Below are positions 1-17,930 of a DNA stretch of 19,097 nt, piece after piece. The stretch is from Methanobacteriota archaeon (GTDB lineage Archaea; Thermoplasmatota; Poseidoniia; Poseidoniales; Thalassarchaeaceae): assembly GCA_002712645.1 (NCBI GenBank), contig PAUH01000042.1:21733-40829 (forward strand). Direction: 5' to 3'. Made by a program: the position numbers and the translations under genes. Position 1 is the first letter of the stretch; each line of letters opens with the position of its first letter. The notes below the pieces were generated by a model. The model did no database searches, was not told where the DNA came from, and worked only from the letters and a program-made list of their open reading frames with translations.

Positions 1-3000
1 CATTCACAGTTTGCACAATACTCTGGTATCCGTGGACCAAACACCATCATCAACCTCGCCTGTGCTTCTGCTACAGCAGCATTCGGTGTTGCAGAGGATT
101 GGCTGAACGCTGACCGAGTTGACCGGGTAGTTATCATCTCTGCAGATGATGTCACTGGCGACGATCTGTGGGAATGGATTGGCGGTGGCTTCGCTGCATC
201 AGGTGCAGCAGCAACGAACAATGTAGTGGAAGAAACGGCTTTGCCATTCGACCGCCGTCGCAATGGTCTGATTCTTGGGATGGGCGCAGCAGCGTTTGTC
301 GTTGAACGAAATTCAGAGGCATCAGAACGTGGTGTGCAGCCAATCGCTGAATTGCTCGGGGCTACAACAGCGAATTCCGCCTTCCATGGTACGCGCCTTG
401 ATGTCGAACACGTGGCTGAAACCGTGGACAATTTCGTAACTGAGATGGAAGAACGTTGGCACCTTGATCGCCATGAAATCGCACCTGATACGGTGTTCTT
501 CTCGCACGAAACCTACACTCCTGCCCGCGGAGGTTCTGCTCAATCTGAAGTACGAGCCTTACGAGACACATTCAAGCACAGCACAAACAAACTTGTCATT
601 GCGAACACGAAAGGATTCACCGGCCATCCAATGGCGGTAGGGATCGAAGATGCCAGTATGTTCCATGGCATGAAAACCGGACGTATTCCTCCGATTGCCA
701 ACCACAAAGAAACCGACCCTGAATTGGGCGATCTTAACCTTTCGACCGGTGGAGAATATCCAAATCTGAAGTATGGTTTGAGGTTTGCAGCGGGCTTTGG
801 CTCGCAAATGGCTCTCTCCCTCGTGCGCCGATGGCCTATTACTGGAGAGCGTATTGATGGTGCGAAATTCCTGGCTTGGAACCGTAAACTTGCAGGTACA
901 CAAGACGTGGTCATGCGCTTGCTTGACCAGAAACTTGTGGCCTATGTTGATGGTGAAGACAACTTGCACGGGGGCGTTCAAGGCGAGCCTTGGCCGATCA
1001 CGGCACCGTTTGAAGGCAAGCCTTCGCTCGTGCCTGAGCCGGCCGTAGCGCCGGTGCCAGAAGCGCCAGCCCCGCCAGCGCCTAAGCCAACTCCAATCGC
1101 ACCTCCAGCAGCGCCTTCACCGCCTGCAGGCCAAGCCCAGGGTGATGTTGTCAGTGCCGTAATCGATGTGGTCGTCAAGCACACAGGATACCCTGCAGAC
1201 TTTGTAGAACTTGATCAAGACTTGGAAGGAGAACTCGGTATTGATACGGTCAAGCAGGCTGAAATCATGGCCGATATACGTGAACAATTTAGTTTGCCAG
1301 TGGACGAGGAATTTGTTCTCGCTGACTATCCAACATTGAATCATATGATTGGGTATATTCAACGAATGACAGGTGGTAAGGCGCCAGCGCCTGCCCCTTC
1401 ACCAGTGGCCATAGAGGATCCAATCCAACCCGCACCCGCACCCGAACCAGCTCCTGCTGCTCCTGCACCGGCTGCAACAGCAATGGCTCCGACAGGTCTT
1501 GTCGACGACGATGCCTTGAACGCCACGGTTGTTGAAGTGGTGGTCAAGCATACCGGTTATCCTGCTGACTTCATTGAACTTGACCAAGACCTCGAAGGAG
1601 AACTGGGTATTGACACTGTCAAGCAAGCCGAAATTATGGCAGACATCCGAGAACAGTTCAGTTTACCTCTTGATGAAGATTTCATTCTTTCAGATTATCC
1701 AACATTGAACCACATGATTGGCTACATCCAACGGATGCAGGGCGGTGCTGTACAGCCGGCAACCAAGGTGCCAAAGCCCGCGCCATCAGTTGTTCAGAGT
1801 GAACCCGTGGCACCTGCACAGGCGCCACCAGCGCCATCTACGCCATTGGCATCGAACAGCGATGTGAACGCACAACTCGTTGAAATTGTTGTCAAACATA
1901 CGGGCTATCCTGCTGATTTCATTGAAATGGACCAAGACCTTGAGGGCGAATTGGGCATTGATACGGTCAAACAGGCTGAAATCATGGGCGATGTACGGGA
2001 TGCCTTTTCTCTTCCTTTGGATGAAGATTTTGTTCTTTCCGATCACCCGACACTGAACCACTTTACAGCCTACATTCTGAAGATGAAAGGCGGTGAAGCC
2101 CCGACAGAAACAGCGATGCCAACGGTTGAAACCACACCAACACCAACCCCAACTCACTCTTCGAACGAAACAACTCACCCAACCCGCCGTTGGCAAATTG
2201 AAGTCGAAGCAGCAGAAGGCCAAGGCTCGCCGCTTTCTCTCGCCGGTACCGCAGTTGTCACCGATGATGGCTGGGGCATCGCAGAAGCGTTCTGTCAGCG
2301 TCTTGAGGCCGATGGTATGGAGGCCATACGAATTGGCTTTGAGAGCAACATCCGCGACATGTCAATTCAGCACGAAGGGAAACGCACAGTCTACCGAGCA
2401 GATCCCGGTAACCCCGAGCATGTGGCAGCGGTGTGTGAAGCATTGAACGAACACAACATCACTGCACTCTTCCACATGGCACCGCTCAAGCTTGCAAGTG
2501 CCTCATGGGCTGAAGACGCAACACCATCGACCCAGATAGCACTGGCTGCCCAGGGATACTTTGCCTTGCTCAAAGGATTGGATGCTAAATTTGCTGCACT
2601 CGAATCGGGTGTTGTTGCCTCAGTCACGGCACTTGATGGCCGCCATGGCAACATCGGTGAGCGATTTAATTCGGTTCAGTGTGCCGCATCAGGTGTCACC
2701 AAATCTTACGCCTTTGAGCAACCGCATGTTCGATGCCGTGCCCTTGACCTTCATCCAGAATTAATTTTGGAGCCTGCTGATGCGGCGAGGATCATCCATG
2801 ACGATGTGTTCGCTCTTGCCGGTGAGGTCGAAATCGGTCTTGATCGAGATGGTCGTCGTTGGACTCTTGTGGCGTTCGCCGAGGACCTTGTCGATGAGAA
2901 GCACCCGCTCACATCAGATGACACTTGGCTTGTGTCTGGTGGCGGTTCAGGTGTCACAGCGGCGTCGATTATTGGCGTAGCGACCGCGTCACCTGATGCC

Positions 3001-4803
3001 GGAGCGCACTTTGCATTGCTTGGCCGGTCTCACCTCATAGAACAAACAGAAGCATGGGTTGATTGGACTGATGCAGAACTTGAATCTGAACGTATGGCGC
3101 TACGAGAGCGGATGGCTGCTGCGAGCGAAACTGGTAAAGTAACCATCGTTGAATGGAACAGTGAATGGCAGAGATTTACCAGGAGCAGGGATGTCTATCT
3201 CACCCTCTCCAGCATCACATCAACAGGCAATACAGCGTCATACCATCCAGTGGATGTGATGGATTATGATGGCATGGTTACGGTTGGTGCTTCCTTGGAG
3301 CGTGTGATCACTGGACTTGTCCATGGTGCTGGTTTGGAAGATTCCAAACTTGTGGGCCAGAAAGACTCCTCCGTTTTCGACAAGGTGGTTCGAGTCAAAG
3401 TTGACGGTTGGCGATGCATGCTTGCAGCGTGCAATGCCTCTGGAGCGGACCTGCCTACGTTTGCTGCTTGTTTCACAAGTGTCGCTGGTCGGTTTGGTAA
3501 TGGTGGCCAAACAGATTATGCTGCAGCAAACAGCGTGCTTGATGCAGAAATGGCCCGGCTCACCGCATCAGGTGTTTGCCGAGCCGTCGCTATTGGCTGG
3601 ACTGGCTGGCGTGATGTTGGGATGGCTACCCGAGGTTCAATTGAAGCTGTTTTTGCAGCAGCTGGAATTGATACACTTTCGGTTGAACAAGGCGTAGAGA
3701 TTTTCGTCGGTGAAGCGCTTGCTGGTGGAAAACGCCGTGTGATTGGCTGTGGTTCTCTGGGGGCAATGGATCGTTTCGATTCCTTTAGAGAAGCCCCTCT
3801 CCGCCTTCCAGCAGAGATGGCAGCGGTGATTGCAGACCCCGAGCGTTTCCCGTTCGTTGACAAAGTCCTCTCATTTGAGGAGGGGCAGTCCTTGCTTACC
3901 CAAGCGACCCTCTCTGCTGCGGATCACCCGTTCCTTGTCGATCATGCCATCGAAGGCGTCCCTTATCACCCCGGAGTCATGGCGCTCGAGATGTTTGCAG
4001 AATCCGCTCTATTGCTGCGTCCGTCGACGTGCTTAGCAGGATTCGAATCTGTTGAGTTCGGCCTGCCTGTGAAATTGCTTAAGGGCGCGATGACCGTACG
4101 GATTCATGCAGAATATGAGCGTACTGAAGGTGAGGTCACTTGGATTTCATGCCGACTCGTGTCTGATTTATCAAACTCAAAGGGCGAAATCTTTGGGGAA
4201 CGAGAACACCACAAGGCGCTGGTTCGTTTGGTTGAGAAATGCGATGATATCTGTCCATTCCTTGAGCAGGAAGTGCACGCCTTGCCCGATCTTGGCATTC
4301 CTGCTCCCGGTGAAGTCATGGAAGAGCCATCGTTCATTTATCGACGTTATTTCCACGGACCTCGTTTCCAATCACATGGTGGTGTGCTTCGTGGCGTTGG
4401 GGACGATTCGATGCCAGGTGCGGATGGGATTGCGTTGATGCGACATCAGTTGCCGCAGTCCGATCAATTTGCCCATGAAGCAACCGGCGACTCAGTCTTG
4501 CTTGAAGCTCTTCCAATGCTCATCGAAGCAGGTTTCCAAAACGCTGGACTTGTCGCGATGGAAACTGAAGGTTTCTCTTCACTCCCAGTCGGTATCGAAT
4601 GGTCATCGATGTTGAGGGTGCCTGAACGTGATGAGCAACTTCGAATGCGCAGCCTTCGGGTTGCAGTTGAAGAGGCGGGCGTCACGGTCCACGATGTTGT
4701 GATTGTTGGCGATGATGATGCTCCGGTGCTTGCTCTCAAGGGCTTACGTCTGAAGGGAATGGCTCCAGTCTCGGCAGAAGATTCGTTCACGCTCGATCGT
4801 TGA
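1..4803 (+). CDS. Polyketide/PUFA-synthase-like multidomain protein (KS-ACP-ACP-ACP-KR-DH), 5'-partial
   Basis: Frame 1 is open from base 1, so the start lies upstream; 1600 codons are visible. Counting from base 1: a ketosynthase with nucleophile C21 in an ACASA motif, H169 in a divergent HETYTP (usual HGTGTP) and H209 in a TGH motif; a Pro/Ala-rich linker; three carrier domains (about 383-457, 505-580, 622-697) separated by more Pro/Ala linkers; a two-part ketoreductase with NADPH loop SGGGSGVT (979-986) and K1133, S1160 and Y1173 in an S-x12-Y pattern; and a double-hotdog dehydratase with H1315 in HxxxGxxxxP and a probable D1497. Pfa-type synthases elongate, reduce and dehydrate acyl chains on tandem carriers, and PfaA is KS-AT-ACPn-KR(-DH). 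Here no AT lies between KS and carriers, so malonyl loading must come from upstream or in trans. The phosphopantetheinyl transferase gene follows directly. Product (fatty acid or polyketide) is unknown. Confidence 0.9.
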   Translation, partial: HSQFAQYSGIRGPNTIINLACASATAAFGVAEDWLNADRVDRVVIISADDVTGDDLWEWIGGGFAASGAAATNNVVEETALPFDRRRNGLILGMGAAAFVVERNSEASERGVQPIAELLGATTANSAFHGTRLDVEHVAETVDNFVTEMEERWHLDRHEIAPDTVFFSHETYTPARGGSAQSEVRALRDTFKHSTNKLVIANTKGFTGHPMAVGIEDASMFHGMKTGRIPPIANHKETDPELGDLNLSTGGEYPNLKYGLRFAAGFGSQMALSLVRRWPITGERIDGAKFLAWNRKLAGTQDVVMRLLDQKLVAYVDGEDNLHGGVQGEPWPITAPFEGKPSLVPEPAVAPVPEAPAPPAPKPTPIAPPAAPSPPAGQAQGDVVSAVIDVVVKHTGYPADFVELDQDLEGELGIDTVKQAEIMADIREQFSLPVDEEFVLADYPTLNHMIGYIQRMTGGKAPAPAPSPVAIEDPIQPAPAPEPAPAAPAPAATAMAPTGLVDDDALNATVVEVVVKHTGYPADFIELDQDLEGELGIDTVKQAEIMADIREQFSLPLDEDFILSDYPTLNHMIGYIQRMQGGAVQPATKVPKPAPSVVQSEPVAPAQAPPAPSTPLASNSDVNAQLVEIVVKHTGYPADFIEMDQDLEGELGIDTVKQAEIMGDVRDAFSLPLDEDFVLSDHPTLNHFTAYILKMKGGEAPTETAMPTVETTPTPTPTHSSNETTHPTRRWQIEVEAAEGQGSPLSLAGTAVVTDDGWGIAEAFCQRLEADGMEAIRIGFESNIRDMSIQHEGKRTVYRADPGNPEHVAAVCEALNEHNITALFHMAPLKLASASWAEDATPSTQIALAAQGYFALLKGLDAKFAALESGVVASVTALDGRHGNIGERFNSVQCAASGVTKSYAFEQPHVRCRALDLHPELILEPADAARIIHDDVFALAGEVEIGLDRDGRRWTLVAFAEDLVDEKHPLTSDDTWLVSGGGSGVTAASIIGVATASPDAGAHFALLGRSHLIEQTEAWVDWTDAELESERMALRERMAAASETGKVTIVEWNSEWQRFTRSRDVYLTLSSITSTGNTASYHPVDVMDYDGMVTVGASLERVITGLVHGAGLEDSKLVGQKDSSVFDKVVRVKVDGWRCMLAACNASGADLPTFAACFTSVAGRFGNGGQTDYAAANSVLDAEMARLTASGVCRAVAIGWTGWRDVGMATRGSIEAVFAAAGIDTLSVEQGVEIFVGEALAGGKRRVIGCGSLGAMDRFDSFREAPLRLPAEMAAVIADPERFPFVDKVLSFEEGQSLLTQATLSAADHPFLVDHAIEGVPYHPGVMALEMFAESALLLRPSTCLAGFESVEFGLPVKLLKGAMTVRIHAEYERTEGEVTWISCRLVSDLSNSKGEIFGEREHHKALVRLVEKCDDICPFLEQEVHALPDLGIPAPGEVMEEPSFIYRRYFHGPRFQSHGGVLRGVGDDSMPGADGIALMRHQLPQSDQFAHEATGDSVLLEALPMLIEAGFQNAGLVAMETEGFSSLPVGIEWSSMLRVPERDEQLRMRSLRVAVEEAGVTVHDVVIVGDDDAPVLALKGLRLKGMAPVSAEDSFTLDR
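1147..2091 (+). repeat. Three tandem acyl-carrier domains with Thr at the phosphopantetheine position
   Basis: Three near-identical blocks share HTGYPADF, DQDLEGELGIDTVKQAEIM, FSLP and PTLNH motifs, separated by Pro/Ala-rich linkers. The residue that normally carries 4'-phosphopantetheine (Ser in GxDS) is Thr in each: codons ACG at 1246-1248, ACT at 1615-1617 and ACG at 1963-1965. The blocks differ at many synonymous positions, so the duplication is old or under protein-level selection. Tandem carriers are typical of PUFA synthases, where they raise throughput. Confidence 0.88.
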
Positions 4804-13620: not shown

Positions 13621-13750
13621 GGTCTCCCTCTTCTTGGTGTTCAGCGAACCTACCTATTCATTCTTCGCTCATCGCGGAGTGGAAGAATCACTCGAAGGTT
13701 GAGGTATGTTGATGTAGTAGGCGCGACGGCCTAAAAGCCCGTTGATGTGC
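13621..13750. promoter_or_regulatory. Divergent promoter region between tdh and pyrG
   Basis: A 130-bp spacer that must hold start signals for both genes. For tdh, TGAATAGG on the minus strand (13653-13660) is a weak TATA candidate upstream of GAGGGAG. For pyrG I see no convincing TATA box at the leaderless distance from 13751; TATG at 13705-13708 is the nearest AT-rich stretch. No repeat of the downstream family occurs here. Confidence 0.35.
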
Positions 13751-15382
13751 ATGAAGTACGTTGTTGTTAGCGGGGGCGTCCTGTCCGGATTGGGCAAAGG
13801 AGTAACTGCAAGCAGCATCGGCGTTTTACTCAAAAGCGCTGGCCTGAGAGTCACTTCAATCAAAATTGACCCCTATCTCAACAGTGATGCTGGAACAATG
13901 TCGCCGTTCGAACATGGCGAAGTTTTCGTTTTGGATGATGGTGGCGAAGTTGACTTGGACCTTGGCAACTATGAGCGTTTCCTCGACATCAACCTCAGAA
14001 AAAACAACAACCTCACCACGGGAAAAATCTACTCAAAGGTCATTGAGGCTGAACGCCGAGGGGATTACCTTGGCAAAACAGTGCAGGTGATTCCTCATGT
14101 CACCGATGCCGTACAAGAATGGATCGAAGATGTAGCACACCAACCTGCAGATGGTAGTGATGAAATCCCCGACGCCTGTATCATTGAACTCGGCGGCACA
14201 GTTGGCGACATTGAGTCTTCGCCGTACATTGAGGCACTTCGGCAATTCCAATTCAGGGTTGGAAGGGAGAACGTGACCTTTGTTCATGTGTCATTGGTGC
14301 CTGTGATGGGTCCAGTGGGTGAACAAAAAACCAAGCCCACACAACATACGGTCAAGGAACTTCGCGGGCTTGGTATTACTCCAGACATTCTCGTGTGCCG
14401 TTCCAGTGCACCACTTACAGTCGAAACCCGGGAAAAACTTGCAGCCTTCTGCCATGTATCTCCACAAGCGGTGATGTCCACCCACGATGTTCCAAACATC
14501 TACCACGTGCCATTGATGCTTCAAGAACAAGGCCTCTGCGATATTCTCGGTGTTGATTGCCATGCCACTGATTTGCTCAAGGATTGGAAAACCATGGCCT
14601 ACCACCTCGATACCTTGACTGAAGCCGTGCACATTGCTATGGTTGGAAAGTACACCGACCTTTCAGATGCCTATCTTTCAGTCATCAAGAGTCTACAGCA
14701 TGCAGCCATGGCAGTTGATCGTAAACTCATCATCGACTGGATTGAAGCAAGCCATCTTGAATCTGATTGGAAGAACGAAGAAGAACAAGCATCCGCTTGG
14801 TCGATGCTCAAGAAGGCAGATGGCGTGCTGGTTCCAGGTGGCTTTGGTGATCGAGGCGTTGAAGGTAAAATTGCAGCAGCGCACTATGCGCGTACCACTC
14901 AAACCCCTTACCTTGGCATCTGCCTCGGGCTTCAGGTGGCAACGATTGAATTCTGTCGAAATGTGTTAGGACTTGAGGGAGCCAACTCCACCGAGTTTGA
15001 TGAAAACCCGTCAACTGCGGCGGTCATTTTCATGCCAGAAATTTCGAAAACACATCTTGGCGGCACCATGCGATTGGGAACCAGGCCAACACTTTGGCAG
15101 GTTGATGAATGTAAGATTCGAACCTTGTACGGTGATGGCGATGCAGTCGACGAACGTCATCGACATCGTTACGAAGTCAATCCAGATTTGATTGAACGCA
15201 TCGAAGCAGAAGGCTTGGTATTTGTCGGTAAGGATGAAACTGGCCAGAGGTGTGAAATTTTTGAGCTCAACGATCATCCATACTATGTCGGTGTTCAATA
15301 CCATCCCGAGTTCAAGAGTCGGCCAGGTCGACCAAGCCCGCCCTTCTTGGGATTGCTCAAGGATTCAACAGGGCAGCTCTGA
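13751..15382 (+). CDS. pyrG: CTP synthase (glutamine-hydrolysing)
   Basis: Makes CTP from UTP, ATP and glutamine; cytosolic, the last step of pyrimidine nucleotide synthesis. The N-terminal amidoligase domain starts [18 protein letters not shown] with its P-loop, and carries [34 protein letters not shown] and the [10 protein letters not shown] motif. The C-terminal class I glutaminase has LVPGGFG, nucleophile C391 in LGICLG, and H518/E520 in YHPEF. Length is 543 residues, normal for the family. I chose ATG 13751 because bacterial and archaeal PyrG proteins usually begin with this MKY sequence; in-frame TTG 13742 and ATG 13745 would add two or three residues. It is the last clearly housekeeping gene before the AT-rich, repeat-bearing region. 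Confidence 0.97.
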
Positions 15383-15386
15383 GCAA

Positions 15387-15466
15387 ACCGTAGTGTCTGA
15401 CAAGACCCACTGCAAGCCCTTTGTTTTGCCAATACCTGAGCAATGGGTATTCGGACACACCCTTTG
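15387..15466 (-). repeat. 80-bp intergenic repeat, copy A (inverted)
   Basis: On the minus strand it starts CAAAGGG, passes through a hairpin of AATACC-N9-GGTATT, then a second CAAAGGG followed by CTTGCAGTGG, and ends ..CTACGGT. By eye it matches copy B at about 69 of 80 positions, 58 of the first 61. It begins 5 bp after the pyrG stop and ends just before the promoter of the Cys-rich mini-gene. It lies in the opposite orientation to copies B and C. Confidence 0.9.
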
Positions 15467-15473
15467 TGTTCAA

Positions 15474-15485
15474 GGTATAAATACC
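15474..15485 (+). promoter_or_regulatory. Strong TATA box of the Cys-rich mini-gene
   Basis: GGTATAAATACC contains a consensus archaeal TATA box (TATAAATA, 15476-15483) centred about 27 bases before ATG 15506, the expected distance for a leaderless transcript starting at the ATG. It is the best promoter in the window and supports the reality of the small gene behind it. It directly follows repeat copy A. Confidence 0.65.
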
Positions 15486-15505
15486 TGTAATGACAATTAG
15501 TTAGT

Positions 15506-15667
15506 ATGCCAGCACAACCAGGTGACTACAATTATTGCAATGATTGTGGAGAAATGTCAGATGAAGAGATGAAGGAATTCCCTATTGAGGAATGCGGAGT
15601 CTGCTTGAAACTCGTGTGTAGTAGATGCACACATTCGAATTGCGGGCCCCTCGAAATGTTTGACTAG
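15506..15667 (+). CDS. Cys-rich mini-protein, probable zinc-binding (53 residues)
   Basis: A 53-residue protein starting MPAQPGDYNYCNDCGEMSDE and ending LEMFD. Seven Cys are arranged as C11-x2-C14, C30-x2-C33, C38-x2-C41 and C46, with H43 nearby, which would suit two zinc sites of the zinc-ribbon or small RING-like kind. Pairing of four CxxC-like units in so short a chain is hard to explain by chance, and a consensus TATA box lies 27 bases before the ATG. No transmembrane segment or signal peptide is seen, so it is probably cytosolic. Such mini-proteins in archaea often bind nucleic acid or partner proteins, but its role is unknown. It is isolated between repeat copies. Confidence 0.72.
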   Translation: MPAQPGDYNYCNDCGEMSDEEMKEFPIEECGVCLKLVCSRCTHSNCGPLEMFD

Positions 15668-15689
15668 ACATTGATTAGGAATTGCGTTT

Positions 15690-15767
15690 CAGAGGGGGCC
15701 CCTTTGCCAATACGCATTGGCAAACGGTACCCTTTGCTTACCCATCAGAGCAGAGGGGGGACCTTTG
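15690..15767 (-). repeat. Variant repeat element E: CAAAGGG units around a 9-bp hairpin
   Basis: Between the convergent ends of the mini-gene and the repeat-protein gene. It contains CAGAGGGGGCCCCTTTG (15690-15706) and CAGAGGGGGGACCTTTG (15751-15767), two 17-mers of the same design, and between them a perfect 9-bp hairpin TTTGCCAAT-ACGC-ATTGGCAAA (15703-15724). On the minus strand, CAAAGGG occurs at 15730-15736 and 15700-15706 with the hairpin between, the same plan as the 80-bp repeat but with a different stem sequence. It could double as a bidirectional terminator. Confidence 0.7.
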
Positions 15768-15772
15768 CAAAA

Positions 15773-17008
15773 TTATTTACGGCGATATTTCTTTACAGCA
15801 AGCACTGTTGAGATGATGAACCCCAGTATAGCAAGCCCAACTTTAACCCTCATTTCCCAATCGATTGGGATTTCACAACCAACTGAATCGACTGATTCAC
15901 CATCATCCGAATTAGAACAGTCATCATATGCATCGATAATTCCGTCTCCGTCCGAATCTAGAATTTCTGCTTCTACACATCCAACTTCATTTGGTATTCC
16001 TGCAGGACTATTTTTGCAAAGATCAGGATTATTTCCTCCGAGATTATCTCCATAACCATCACCATCCGAATCAAACCACTGAGTGGAATCTTGAGGGAAT
16101 TTATCACCGTTAGTACCCGATGGATTATCTCCATAACCATCGCCGTCAGAATCAGTCCATTGGGTAGAATCTTGGGGGAATAAATCGGGGTTGTTTCCGG
16201 AGGCATTATCTCCATACCCATCACCATCAGAGTCAAACCATTGAGTGGAATCTTGTGGGAGTTTGTCACCGTTAGTACCCGATGGGTTATCTCCATAACC
16301 ATCGCCATCAGAATCAGCCCACTGGGTAGAATCCTGAGGATATAAATCGGGATTATTTCCGGAGGCGTTATCTCCATAACCATCGCCGTCCGAGTCTAAA
16401 TGCTGGGTTTGGTCATTATCAAAATCATCTACACTATCTTCATACCCATCGCCGTCAGAATCTACTGAAGTCGTGGTTGGAGAAATTACTTCCCATTGAG
16501 ATGCTGCATTTTTCCAATTTGTATCATTATCAATGAATCCTGAACCATTGTATTCCATAGAATATTCATTCAGCCATTCGAAGACAAATACTAATTCCCA
16601 TTCCTCTACATCAGAATTCATATCACATTCGTCATCATTTGCCAAATCATCATCTCTGCACTGAATTGTAAATGTTATCAGTGACGAATCGTCTGGAATA
16701 TTGATTGAAAGATTCCAATCATTACCAAGCGTGTATGTGTCGGCCCAAACCTCACTGTCATAACAGTCAACGCGCTCTTGGTCAGCATCGACACATACCC
16801 TGAACCATATGTCAGGTGCGCCATTCGAAGAATCCCATTCTTCTGATTCAGAGGTGTTGAACTGATGGAGTTTCAACATTAATGTGGCATCTACGTCGTC
16901 CCGATGATCATATTCGTCATCATACCCATCGCCATCGGTGTCCTGAGCACCAGCAGAAGATAATAAAATTATTACAGACAAAAGTGAGACGAGTTTGACA
17001 CTTCTCAT
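15773..17008 (-). CDS. Secreted, membrane-anchored thrombospondin-type-3-like calcium-binding repeat protein
   Basis: 411 residues: signal peptide (1-21, MRSVKLVSLLSVIILLSSAGA), one DTDGDGYDDE motif, an unrecognised beta-rich region (about 40-180) containing several Cys, a set of Asp-rich DSDGDGYGDN repeats (183-370), and a C-terminal helix (about 387-405) followed by KKYRRK, which anchors the protein with its bulk outside. DxDxDGxxD loops bind calcium and form stiff rods in thrombospondin type 3 domains, so the repeats probably act as a stalk presenting the N-terminal domain at the cell surface. Its own TATA box lies 27 bases upstream of ATG 17008. The gene is AT-rich in its unique parts and is bounded by repeat elements on both sides. 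Likely roles are adhesion, particle attachment or defence; the sequence does not decide. Confidence 0.9.
   Translation of the reverse strand: MRSVKLVSLLSVIILLSSAGAQDTDGDGYDDEYDHRDDVDATLMLKLHQFNTSESEEWDSSNGAPDIWFRVCVDADQERVDCYDSEVWADTYTLGNDWNLSINIPDDSSLITFTIQCRDDDLANDDECDMNSDVEEWELVFVFEWLNEYSMEYNGSGFIDNDTNWKNAASQWEVISPTTTSVDSDGDGYEDSVDDFDNDQTQHLDSDGDGYGDNASGNNPDLYPQDSTQWADSDGDGYGDNPSGTNGDKLPQDSTQWFDSDGDGYGDNASGNNPDLFPQDSTQWTDSDGDGYGDNPSGTNGDKFPQDSTQWFDSDGDGYGDNLGGNNPDLCKNSPAGIPNEVGCVEAEILDSDGDGIIDAYDDCSNSDDGESVDSVGCEIPIDWEMRVKVGLAILGFIISTVLAVKKYRRK
15992..16396 (-). repeat. Five tandem 81-bp (27-residue) units with a 162-bp two-unit period
   Basis: Residues 205-339 are five 27-residue units. 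Units alternate between DSDGDGYGDNASGNNPDL and DSDGDGYGDNPSGTNGDK, each followed by a PQDSTQW tail, so units 1 and 3 resemble each other, as do 2 and 4: a higher-order repeat from duplicating pairs. The fifth unit is degenerate (LGGNNPDLCKNSPAG). DNA similarity is high, so the unit number may vary between strains. Confidence 0.9.
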
Positions 17009-17030
17009 ACTTTGGCTGTGAATATGCTTC

Positions 17031-17040
17031 TATTAAAAAG
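17031..17040 (-). promoter_or_regulatory. TATA box of the repeat-protein gene
   Basis: CTTTTTAATA on the minus strand, centred about 27 bases before ATG 17008 with no ribosome-binding site between, which fits a leaderless transcript. Confidence 0.5.
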
Positions 17041-17093
17041 GTCATGCGGCATAATTCCTAACTCAAGAATATACCAATCGATTCGGATAAACG

Positions 17094-17173
17094 CAAAGGG
17101 TGTATCCGAATACCCATTGCTCAGGTATTTGCAAATCAAAGGGCTTGCAGTGGGCCGATACAGAGGCTACCGT
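17094..17173 (+). repeat. 80-bp intergenic repeat, copy B
   Basis: CAAAGGG at 17094-17100 and again at 17137-17143, 43 bp apart, with the AATACC-N9-GGTATT hairpin between, then CTTGCAGTGGG and CAGAGGCTACC. It also holds a palindrome, ATTTGCAAAT, not seen in copies A and C. It lies upstream of the repeat-protein gene and 2 bp from the stop codon of the small membrane-protein gene. It is inverted relative to copy A, about 1.6 kb away. Confidence 0.92.
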
Positions 17174-17175
17174 TG

Positions 17176-17316
17176 TTATGGTCCAAAAAGGATCTCCAAA
17201 GCAGATTTTATCCATCCCTTTCTAATAGCGATAATTATCGCCAATATTAGAAACAAACCATAACATAAATCCCACATAATTTCATCTAAAAGAATGGATT
17301 GTAAGAACAATTCCAT
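17176..17316 (-). CDS. One-helix mini membrane protein (46 residues)
   Basis: Starts MELFLQSILLDEIMWDLCYG, continues into a strongly hydrophobic helix (about 18-32) and ends in a positively charged KGWIKSALEILFGP segment. One helix followed by Arg/Lys fits an N-out, C-in small membrane protein, and the C-terminal part could form an amphipathic helix on the inner face. An in-frame extension to 17364 would run into repeat copy C, so ATG 17316 is preferred. A weak TATA-like GGATATGCC lies about 35 bases upstream inside copy C. It fits exactly between copies B and C. No recognised family; it could be a toxin-like or regulatory mini-protein, or a chance reading frame. Confidence 0.42.
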   Translation of the reverse strand: MELFLQSILLDEIMWDLCYGLFLILAIIIAIRKGWIKSALEILFGP

Positions 17317-17340
17317 GACATAATCCTTTTCGGATAGGTT

Positions 17341-17420
17341 CAGAGGGCATATCCCAATACCCATTGCTCAGGTATTGACAAATCAAAGGGCTTGCAGTGG
17401 ACCTTGTCAGACGCTACCCT
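17341..17420 (+). repeat. 80-bp intergenic repeat, copy C
   Basis: Starts CAGAGGG, where A and B have CAAAGGG, has the identical hairpin core and CAAAGGG at 17384-17390 with the same 43-bp spacing, and ends CTTGTCAGACGCTACCCT, a tail closer to copy A than to B. By eye it matches B at about 67 of 80 positions, in the same orientation. Confidence 0.92.
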
Positions 17421-17437
17421 ATGTATGGCCTGTGATA

Positions 17438-17454
17438 CAGAGGGCCCACCTTTG
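17438..17454 (+). repeat. 17-bp CAGAGGG-ACCTTTG motif
   Basis: CAGAGGGCCCACCTTTG matches the two 17-mers in element E at both ends and in length, differing only in the middle bases. It stands 17 bp after copy C and 47 bp before the next ATG. Confidence 0.7.
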
Positions 17455-17482
17455 AAAACGACTTACGATAAACCAATAAATC

Positions 17483-17490
17483 AAGGTGAT
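17483..17490 (+). promoter_or_regulatory. Consensus ribosome-binding site (AAGGTGAT)
   Basis: AAGGTGAT is fully complementary to the 3' end typical of archaeal 16S rRNA, 11 bases before ATG 17502. Unlike its neighbours, this gene is therefore translated from a leadered transcript. AACCAATAAA just upstream (17471-17480) may be a TATA-like element only if transcription starts very near the site. Confidence 0.5.
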
Positions 17491-17501
17491 ATAGGTTTGG
17501 C

Positions 17502-17831
17502 ATGGCTTTCGGTTTTCCCGCATATCACCAAGAAAAAATAGATTTAACAATACCTCGGAATAAGATTTTTTCATTCCTTGAACCAATTATTGGCTCCTTC
17601 TCTTGGAGTATACTCGAATCCACGGAAAACCAGATGTTAGTTCGGACAAAAGATAGATTGTTGTCTGAGCATATAGAATATGTTAGAATCACTATTTTGC
17701 CTTCTGGTTCTATTCAGGTCCGAAGTGAATGTGAGTACTTTCTAACGTGTTTCGACTGGGGTAGAAACAAAAAAAATGTGCGTAAACTTCAATCGGCAAT
17801 TCATGGAATATTATCACAAATGCGCGAATAA
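17502..17831 (+). CDS. Conserved-looking small cytosolic protein, unknown function
   Basis: 109 residues with no signal peptide or membrane helix. The arrangement is beta-rich: an N-terminal YHQEKIDLTIPRNKIFSFLEP segment, a GSFSWSILESTENQMLVRTKD strand pair, an ITILPSGSIQVRSECE strand pair, then CFDWGRNKKNVRKLQSAIHGI at the C-terminus. The last pattern, S-x-S/C followed by DWGxNKxNVxxF and a closing helix, reminds me of uncharacterised small proteins in Bacteroidetes, so transfer from bacteria is possible, but I cannot name a family. A consensus ribosome-binding site precedes ATG 17502. Repeat elements flank it on both sides, and the repeat downstream begins at its stop codon. Confidence 0.75.
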   Translation: MAFGFPAYHQEKIDLTIPRNKIFSFLEPIIGSFSWSILESTENQMLVRTKDRLLSEHIEYVRITILPSGSIQVRSECEYFLTCFDWGRNKKNVRKLQSAIHGILSQMRE

Positions 17832-17907
17832 GAGGGTTCATTCGAAACCCCTTTGCATTTTATTACCCGATACAAAGGGGATTCAGTGGGACGATACAGA
17901 TGCTCCC
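17831..17907 (+). repeat. Degenerate repeat copy D
   Basis: The last 35 bp (17873-17907) match the tail of copy B at about 29 positions: CAAAGGG, CAGTGGG, CGATACAGA, GCTCCC. The front differs: CCCCTTTG (17848-17855) and CAAAGGGG (17873-17880) form an 8-bp stem with a 17-base loop instead of the usual hairpin. It lies between two convergent genes and begins at the stop codon of the upstream one. Confidence 0.75.
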
Positions 17908-17930
17908 CTCTCGAAACCGTATTTATTCAA

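What the first reader, a model, noticed from the sequence alone, without database searches (positions are those of the whole stretch)
15387..17907. CAAAGGG repeat family in every spacer of the accessory region, forming a one-gene-one-repeat layout
All five spacers downstream of pyrG carry a member (A, E, B, C plus a 17-mer, D), and I see none in the spacers upstream. I located nine exact CAAAGGG heptamers (both strands) within about 2.5 kb of this region; chance expectation at equal base use is about 0.3. Genes between repeats are small, unrelated, on both strands, and each seems to have its own promoter. The repeats occur in convergent, divergent and tandem spacers, so a terminator role alone does not explain them. 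This resembles a gene-cassette array or a recombination hotspot with repeats as exchange sites. I know of no described archaeal system with these features.
Basis: partly seen in the sequence, partly recalled or inferred. Interest (0 to 1): 0.8.

Follow-up and report, generated by a model that had tools for sequence, protein, structure and literature searches.

The report
Archaeal gene cassettes with serine recombinase
In common ocean archaea, small accessory genes sit in DNA cassettes that end in a shared repeat of about 100 bases; related strains carry the same cassettes in different places with breaks at one two-letter point of the repeat, and a small recombination enzyme that could move them lies beside copies of the repeat.

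Summary
The repeat is real and not confined to this window: a Poseidoniales-wide family (187 of 291 genomes, 21 of 22 genera). It behaves as a site-specific recombination site. Among 8074 copy pairs, 26 share only upstream DNA, 5 only downstream, 1 both; in 16 of the 26, homology ends 0-6 nt after the T of a GC-TA core, in 9 earlier, in 1 later. A 107-aa-gene cassette sits in four genomes in different surroundings with boundaries at this core. No integron integrase passes its cut-off (0 of 62) and no Y1 transposase was found (0 of 62). A 262-aa serine recombinase subfamily has a repeat before its start codon, always divergent, in 11 of 12 testable loci, against 0 of 16 for less similar recombinases. 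Repeat plus recombinase is itself a mobile 1-kb unit. Best reading: a gene-cassette system that works like an integron but uses an unrelated serine recombinase and unrelated sites. Activity is inferred from comparison, not shown; most genomes with sites lack a detected recombinase. The window carries four cassettes behind pyrG, the first inverted.

The parts
13742..15382 (+). pyrG, the chromosomal gene behind which the cassettes sit
   Evidence: 546-aa ORF; homologs in 55 of 60 genomes, 95% identical in G037
15391..15729 (-). cassette 1 (inverted, 339 bp), from TA core 15391 to TA core 15728
   Evidence: cores located; the DNA beside its right end is shared with G062 (L042) up to GACACTAC, then differs
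15378..15467 (-). right-end site A (conserved part as called; the core TA is 15391-15392)
   Evidence: profile match E 2e-22
15506..15667 (+). 53-aa ORF rich in cysteine, cargo of cassette 1
   Evidence: ORF; no Pfam match
   Evidence: (D5, I12)
15728..17169 (+). cassette 2 (1442 bp)
   Evidence: cores; 87% match over 1114 nt in G068 (L039), whose further flank differs
15773..17008 (-). 411-aa protein with DSDGDGYGDN-type repeats, cargo of cassette 2
   Evidence: 81-nt repeats (D1); no Pfam match
17072..17184 (+). right-end site E; core TA 17168-17169
   Evidence: profile match E 1.5e-29
17168..17416 (+). cassette 3 (249 bp)
   Evidence: cores; no relative noticed in the loci fetched
17176..17316 (-). 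46-aa hydrophobic ORF, possible cargo of cassette 3
   Evidence: inside an ORF; no Pfam match; its reality as a gene is not shown
17319..17431 (+). right-end site B; core TA 17415-17416
   Evidence: profile match E 1.3e-27
17415..17905 (+). cassette 4 (491 bp); its right core reads TC, not TA (17904-17905)
   Evidence: no relative noticed in the loci fetched
17502..17831 (+). 109-aa ORF, cargo of cassette 4
   Evidence: only a match below cut-off in Pfam
17829..17918 (+). right-end site D
   Evidence: profile match E 2.2e-18

Best explanation
The repeats are the right-end recombination sites of mobile gene cassettes. A cassette runs from one TA core to the next: a left end beginning TA-S-S-S, a small gene in either orientation, and the right end of about 100 nt, which carries several CAAAGGG-like boxes in both orientations and finishes in GC-TA. 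A small serine recombinase (262 aa: resolvase-type catalytic domain plus the start of the large-serine-recombinase DNA-binding domain) most likely binds these boxes, cuts at the TA, and excises and re-inserts cassettes behind existing sites or at chromosomal TA sequences next to a CAAAGGG-like box, such as just behind pyrG. TA reads the same on both strands, so either orientation is possible, which gives the left-left and right-right junctions seen. The recombinase gene with its own site is itself mobile and would act in trans in genomes that lack it. Shown by sequence: the site family, one-sided sharing, breaks at the core, cassette relocation, linkage to the recombinase. Inferred: binding, cutting, a circular intermediate, action in trans.
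For: Order-wide site family. One-sided sharing: 26 upstream only, 5 downstream only, 1 both, of 8074 pairs; homology ends 0-6 nt after the T of the core in 16 of the 26, in 9 of 11 groups of related copies (grouping mine). One cassette in four genomes and settings with both boundaries at the core. AH-273-O19 and G103 shared to CACTGCCTA, then different. Serine recombinase subfamily: divergent site 60-598 nt before the start in 11 of 12 testable loci, 0 of 16 in less similar recombinases. Site plus gene is the only long shared block between L243 and L244 (1072 bp, 91%) and between L249 and L250 (1033 bp, 88%). Resolvase domain and large-serine-recombinase fold. A 2-bp core is typical of serine recombinases (established knowledge). 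Left-left and right-right junctions sharing one TA.
Against: Sites far outnumber recombinases: members at least 55% identical to the query lie in 12 of 317 genomes among the loci fetched, sites in 187 of 291. G037, one contig and 96% complete, has 6 sites and no PF00239 hit. The window contig pieces read show no recombinase identified by me. Nine of 26 upstream pairs lose homology inside the repeat, several near -43, and one runs 14 nt past the core; the 5 downstream-only pairs do not place the break cleanly. One recombinase of the subfamily (L242) has no detectable site. The far end of the recombinase unit lies in its last codons and is not always next to TA. Mixed orientation of neighbours. 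No activity was measured.
Confidence: 0.72

Rival explanations
1. The sites are real exchange points, but another enzyme moves the cassettes, such as the Xer-like tyrosine recombinase found in every genome tested or an unrecognised nuclease; the serine recombinase unit only uses the same sites.
For: PF00589 hits in 18 of 18 genomes tested, 14 of them with a single hit. Most genomes with sites lack a detected serine recombinase of the subfamily.
Against: The Xer-like gene is equally present in genus g1, of which four genomes are listed without a site. A 2-bp core with no longer shared overlap is unlike the 6-8 bp overlap of tyrosine recombinases acting on duplex DNA (established knowledge). The serine subfamily is linked to the sites in 11 of 12 testable loci.
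Confidence: 0.12
2. The repeat is a passive dispersed intergenic element (like REP or a small non-coding RNA), and homologous recombination or gene loss around it makes the one-sided sharing.
For: Sites are intergenic (3 of 98 hit midpoints inside ORFs of at least 100 aa). Nine of 26 shared blocks end inside the repeat, as homologous exchange would give.
Against: In 16 of 26 pairs homology ends within 6 nt of one dinucleotide; cassette left ends also start at a TA; the recombinase linkage; pairing in a hand-placed two-helix structure does not exceed shuffles and Rfam has no match.
Confidence: 0.09
3. A canonical integron: attC sites and cassettes moved by IntI acting on folded single strands.
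For: Same logic: gene-plus-site units, crossover near the right end of the site, recombinase gene divergent from an adjacent site. RNAalifold finds one six-pair helix, three pairs of which have at least one two-sided change.
Against: TIGR02249 over its cut-off in 0 of 62 genomes. The core is GC-TA-SS, not the GTT triplet of attC (recalled). Pairing of a two-helix structure equals shuffles. The linked enzyme is a serine recombinase.
Confidence: 0.03
4. Non-autonomous transposons (MITE-like or IS200/IS605-like palindromic elements) carrying passenger genes.
For: Dyads at both ends; relatives in unrelated settings.
Against: Y1_Tnp in 0 of 62 genomes of the genus. I saw no terminal inverted repeats when reading the ends. 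Pfam scans of 219 proteins near sites gave one resolvase and no transposase among the families shown, the best 25 per set.
Confidence: 0.04

Closest known systems
Integrons, including archaeal integrons (PMC9668308, passages read)
   Same: Cassettes of one small gene plus a recombination site; crossover near the right end of the site; recombinase gene divergent from a neighbouring site; many clusters without a recombinase
   Different: Serine instead of tyrosine recombinase; GC-TA core and multi-box site instead of attC; mixed cassette orientation; recombinase unit itself mobile; the words Thermoplasmat, Poseidon and Marine Group do not occur in the main text searched
Staphylococcal cassette chromosome (CcrA/B/C)
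   Same: Serine recombinase, insertion behind a housekeeping gene, elements with and without the recombinase (the last two recalled)
   Different: Ccr models match only partly and far below cut-off (84.5 of 900 bits at best for CcrB among the five proteins scanned); units here are 0.25-1.4 kb in the window with one gene each
Large serine integrases (TP901-1, Bxb1)
   Same: Resolvase-type domain and start of the PF07508 domain; nearest solved sequence TP901-1 and nearest fold Bxb1
   Different: Only 262 aa; the PF07508 match stops about half way and no zinc-ribbon family was reported
IS607-type serine transposases
   Same: Serine recombinase in a small mobile unit
   Different: NF033518 at 24-29 bits against a cut-off of 110 in four of five proteins
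Charybdis elements (PMC12324425, outline and passages read)
   Same: Mobile DNA integrating in the same archaeal order
   Different: Circular elements of about 4.6 kb with about 10 genes, several next to tRNA genes

Membership tests
Integron | Integron integrase IntI | tested here: not met
   TIGR02249 over cut-off in 0 of 62 genomes of the genus; weaker matches in 57 are Xer-like
Integron | attC site with conserved GTT crossover triplet and folded-strand structure | tested here: not met
   Core is GC-TA-SS (TA and the S after it are required by the pattern used); no pairing above shuffles. No formal attC model was run
Integron | Arrays of gene-plus-site units | tested here: met
   L076: four same-direction sites with one gene per interval; window: four cassettes, first inverted
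Integron | Recombinase gene next to a primary site | tested here: inconclusive
   Site before the recombinase start, divergent, in 11 of 12 testable loci, but of a serine enzyme, and the unit itself is mobile
Serine recombinase (PF00239) | Resolvase catalytic domain with the YxRVS motif | tested here: met
   PF00239 at 106-111 bits in the three subfamily members scanned; Y16, R18, V19 invariant and S20 nearly so in 43 sequences
Large serine recombinase | Full recombinase and zinc-ribbon domains after the catalytic domain | tested here: not met
   PF07508 matched over about half its length, no zinc-ribbon family reported, 262 aa
SCC (Ccr) | CcrA, CcrB or CcrC recombinase | tested here: not met
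   Best 84.5 bits against a cut-off of 900
IS607 | IS607 serine transposase | tested here: not met
   24-29 bits against a cut-off of 110
IS200/IS605 or REP-associated elements | Y1 transposase in the genomes | tested here: not met
   PF01797 in 0 of 62 genomes of the genus
Serine-recombinase gene-cassette system (proposed here) | Recombinase catalyses exchange at the TA of the site | not testable with these tools
   Needs a recombination assay

The most novel reading that the evidence does not exclude
Poseidoniales have an independently evolved equivalent of the integron: a mini serine recombinase with its own adjacent site, mobilising one-gene cassettes that share a multi-box right end of about 100 bp and a palindromic TA core, in trans and in either orientation, across genera of abundant ocean archaea.
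Probability: 0.65. Interest if true: 0.92.

Novelty: new variant of a known kind. Interest (0 to 1): 0.82.

Why it matters
If true, gene-cassette shuffling has arisen more than once, with an unrelated recombinase chemistry and unrelated sites. It would give a concrete, testable route for accessory-gene exchange in marine archaea that are widespread and uncultured, and may help explain why their assemblies break at such places: 26 of the 150 sites listed start within 500 bases of a contig start (hand count; my own rough estimate from contig numbers is about 5). A 262-aa recombinase with defined sites could also be useful as a laboratory tool.

Tried and rejected
Rfam scan: no match. Searching the MAG's own genus was misleading: copies only in the window's contig, because the contig belongs to the other family. 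A two-heptamer pattern search of the MAG gave one hit on another contig that I did not pursue. Folded RNA or single-strand DNA: dyads look good by eye, but pairing equals shuffles, although RNAalifold reports one weak helix. Integron integrase, Xer and Y1 transposase as the enzyme. Clustering and Pfam scans of genes near sites gave no recurring transposase; one resolvase hit led onward. A viral-contig pattern hit (L265) matched only the 20 bases of the pattern and looks like chance. Viral contigs gave 3 distant recombinases, 33% identity or less. Phage and plasmid collections: listed hits at 36% or less (the tally also counts one phage record in the 60-80% band that I did not open, and the search hit its limit). 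My first automatic core finders misplaced some cores, so counts use, which does not assume the core. Laxer blastn criteria list 20 pairs sharing both sides, 18 of them two copies in one locus. Within-element box similarity exceeds shuffles (0 of 2000), but copies are related, so little weight. PADLOC was run on one of two protein sets, and many of those proteins are chromosomal neighbours, so no conclusion about defence cargo. The structure model (pLDDT 78.5, pTM 0.47) supports the fold class only.
Full report
WHAT WAS CLAIMED AND CHECKED. This holds. Nine exact heptamers lie between 15417 and 17879, and 12 in the window against 2.9 expected (0 of 200 shuffles). Repeat finding gives the long copies A, E and B at 80-87%. 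Profile search places sites at 15378-15467 (-), 17072-17184 (+), 17319-17431 (+) and 17829-17918 (+). Copy C is not a full copy; it is two short left ends meeting head to head at a TA (15728).

WHOSE DNA IT IS. The MAG holding the window (86.7% complete, 6.3% contaminated) has three pyrG genes. The window's is 95% identical to that of G037, a single-contig genome of another family of the order; the other two score like those of the MAG's own genus. The window contig is probably misbinned. BLAST with site E finds only the window's own contig among 11 genomes of the MAG's genus, but copies in 40 of 62 genomes of G037's genus. A covariance model (R1, 39 copies) finds sites in 55 of 62 genomes of that genus (E at most 0.01, up to 17 per genome) and in 187 of 291 of the order (E at most 0.001; 21 of 22 genera). 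Named records with the recombinase described below are Poseidonia, Candidatus Poseidonia alphae and other Poseidoniales, among them AH-273-O19, whose record lacks the MAG label and whose name has the style of a single-cell genome (style recalled).

ANATOMY. Aligned copies show a TTCGGATA...TATCCGAA dyad around a CARAGGG box, then CCCATTG, CAAAGGG, GCAGTGGG, a variable stretch, and GC-TA. In 96 sites picked by a pattern that requires TA and a following C or G, the base before TA is C in 91, and C or G fill the second and third places after TA in 91 and 94. Hit midpoints fall inside ORFs of at least 100 aa in 3 of 98 cases, although 84% of bases in those loci are coding. Beyond the TA a short left end begins, often with a GGGCCC-like palindrome. 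Left-left and right-right junctions sharing one TA occur.

SITE-SPECIFIC EXCHANGE. Flanks of 144 distinct copies showed pairs sharing one side only. A test that does not use the core scored 8074 pairs of copies from different loci: 26 share only the upstream side, 5 only the downstream side, 1 both (the same place in G100 and G109); pairs with intermediate scores are not counted. In 16 of the 26, local homology ends 0-6 nt after the T of the core; one runs 14 nt past; nine end earlier inside the repeat. By my grouping these are 11 sets of related copies, and 9 contain a pair ending at the core. The five downstream-only pairs do not place the break as cleanly: in three the shared block runs 20-27 nt back into the conserved boxes, in two it starts 2 nt after the T in one partner and about 33 nt away in the other. 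Examples: G109 and G100 are identical over 1200 nt upstream and through the site to GGCTACC, then unrelated (L161/L155); AH-273-O19 and G103 are nearly identical to CACTGCCTA, then unrelated. The window's site A matches G062 (L042) to GACACTAC, after which the window goes into pyrG.

A MOVING CASSETTE. A unit of about 430 bp with a 107-aa gene sits in G100, G103, G109 and G110 in four settings. The alignment is shared from TACCC at the left, preceded by four different sequences, to the core at the right (CGCTA twice, CGTTA, CGCGA). Its right part is 98.7% identical over 154 nt between G103 (genus g12) and G038 (g13), whereas the window and G038 share 75% over 1201 nt of pyrG-side DNA. In the window, cores at 15391, 15728, 17168, 17415 and a degenerate one at 17904 (TC) mark four cassettes of 339, 1442, 249 and 491 bp, the first inverted. 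Cassettes 1 and 2 have relatives in G062 and G068 with other neighbours; for E and L039 the homology ends 12 nt before the core. I saw none for 3 and 4 in the loci fetched. pyrG is followed by a site in G038 too (L012), and in G048 the contig stops at CAAAGGGTA just behind the pyrG stop codon (L024).

THE ENZYME. IntI is over its cut-off in 0 of 62 genomes and the Y1 transposase in 0 of 62. PF00589 hits in 18 of 18 genomes tested, four of them with a second, weaker hit, and as strongly in genus g1, of which four genomes are listed without a site. PF00239 hits in 6 of 18 genomes included loci beside repeats. An order-wide search with six members (A6) returned 28 of 317 genomes at E at most 1e-30; 30 loci were fetched and five further matches were not. 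Fourteen loci from 12 genomes hold a protein at least 55% identical to the query. Twelve have enough upstream DNA, and 11 of these have a site 60-598 nt before the start codon, always on the opposite strand. Untestable are L218 and L228; the miss is L242. The other 16 loci, below 50% identity, have none. Two pairs of recombinase loci share only site plus gene as a long block (1072 bp at 91%, L243/L244; 1033 bp at 88%, L249/L250, besides short repeat matches). The protein is a resolvase-type domain with the start of PF07508, nearest in sequence to TP901-1 and in fold to Bxb1 integrase. A protein search gives 1011 relatives among 1400 candidates; most of the 120 listed are on contigs of a few kilobases.

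MECHANISM. Serine recombinases exchange strands at a 2-bp core (established knowledge), which fits the TA. I infer that the enzyme binds the CAAAGGG-like boxes, excises a cassette between two cores as a circle, and re-inserts it at another site or at a chromosomal TA next to a CAAAGGG-like sequence. The palindromic core would explain both orientations. Shown: breaks, relocation, linkage. Inferred: binding, catalysis, circle, action in trans.

WHAT SPEAKS AGAINST IT. Sites greatly outnumber recombinases; G037 has 6 sites but no PF00239 hit. Some exchanges end inside the repeat. The far end of the recombinase unit is inside its last codons and only sometimes next to TA. Neighbour orientation is mixed (20 same, 16 opposite within 4 kb; 10 of 14 same under 1 kb, one of the four opposite pairs overlapping), unlike textbook integron arrays. 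These loci were fetched because they hold sites, so clustering was not measured without bias.

COMPARISON WITH PRINT. Full-text searches of the held library listed no paper that I could recognise as describing such a system. I read passages of PMC9668308 and the outline and passages of PMC12324425; the other papers I saw only as listings. It works like an integron but fails integron membership on integrase and core, and fails the Ccr, IS607 and Y1 tests. I file it as a new variant of the site-specific gene-cassette kind, not as a member of a named family.

Noticed in passing
window as a whole (G000:C7): The MAG is mixed: three pyrG genes, the window's one from the other family of the order.
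   Followed up: partly
window 16022-16426: The 411-aa protein carries 81-nt tandem repeats encoding DSDGDGYGDN-type motifs, possibly calcium-binding.
   Followed up: no
window 1-4803: A 1600-aa open frame with three repeated carrier-protein-like stretches (TVKQAEIMAD), looking like a polyunsaturated-fatty-acid-type synthase piece; the naming is from recall.
   Followed up: no
L012, L024 and window 15383-15392: Three genera have a site or a CAAAGGGTA end just behind pyrG, so the pyrG 3' end may be a preferred target.
   Followed up: partly
L064:1481, L162:7301, L174:6785, L062:576: Some pairs lose homology about 43 nt before the core, between the second and third box: a second exchange point or gene conversion.
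   Followed up: no
L206, L207, L208, L210: A second serine recombinase subfamily (MADHIATRKSTFTSAS) in the same order has no such site beside it; its role is unknown.
   Followed up: partly
L148, L161, L249 (sequences around CACTGCCTA): A diverged right-end subtype (GGGTGTTCAGTC...GTACACTGCCTA) recurs, often facing a normal right end across one TA.
   Followed up: partly
L088-L095: Xer-like tyrosine recombinases of about 360-400 aa, in two recurring neighbourhoods among the eight loci read.
   Followed up: no
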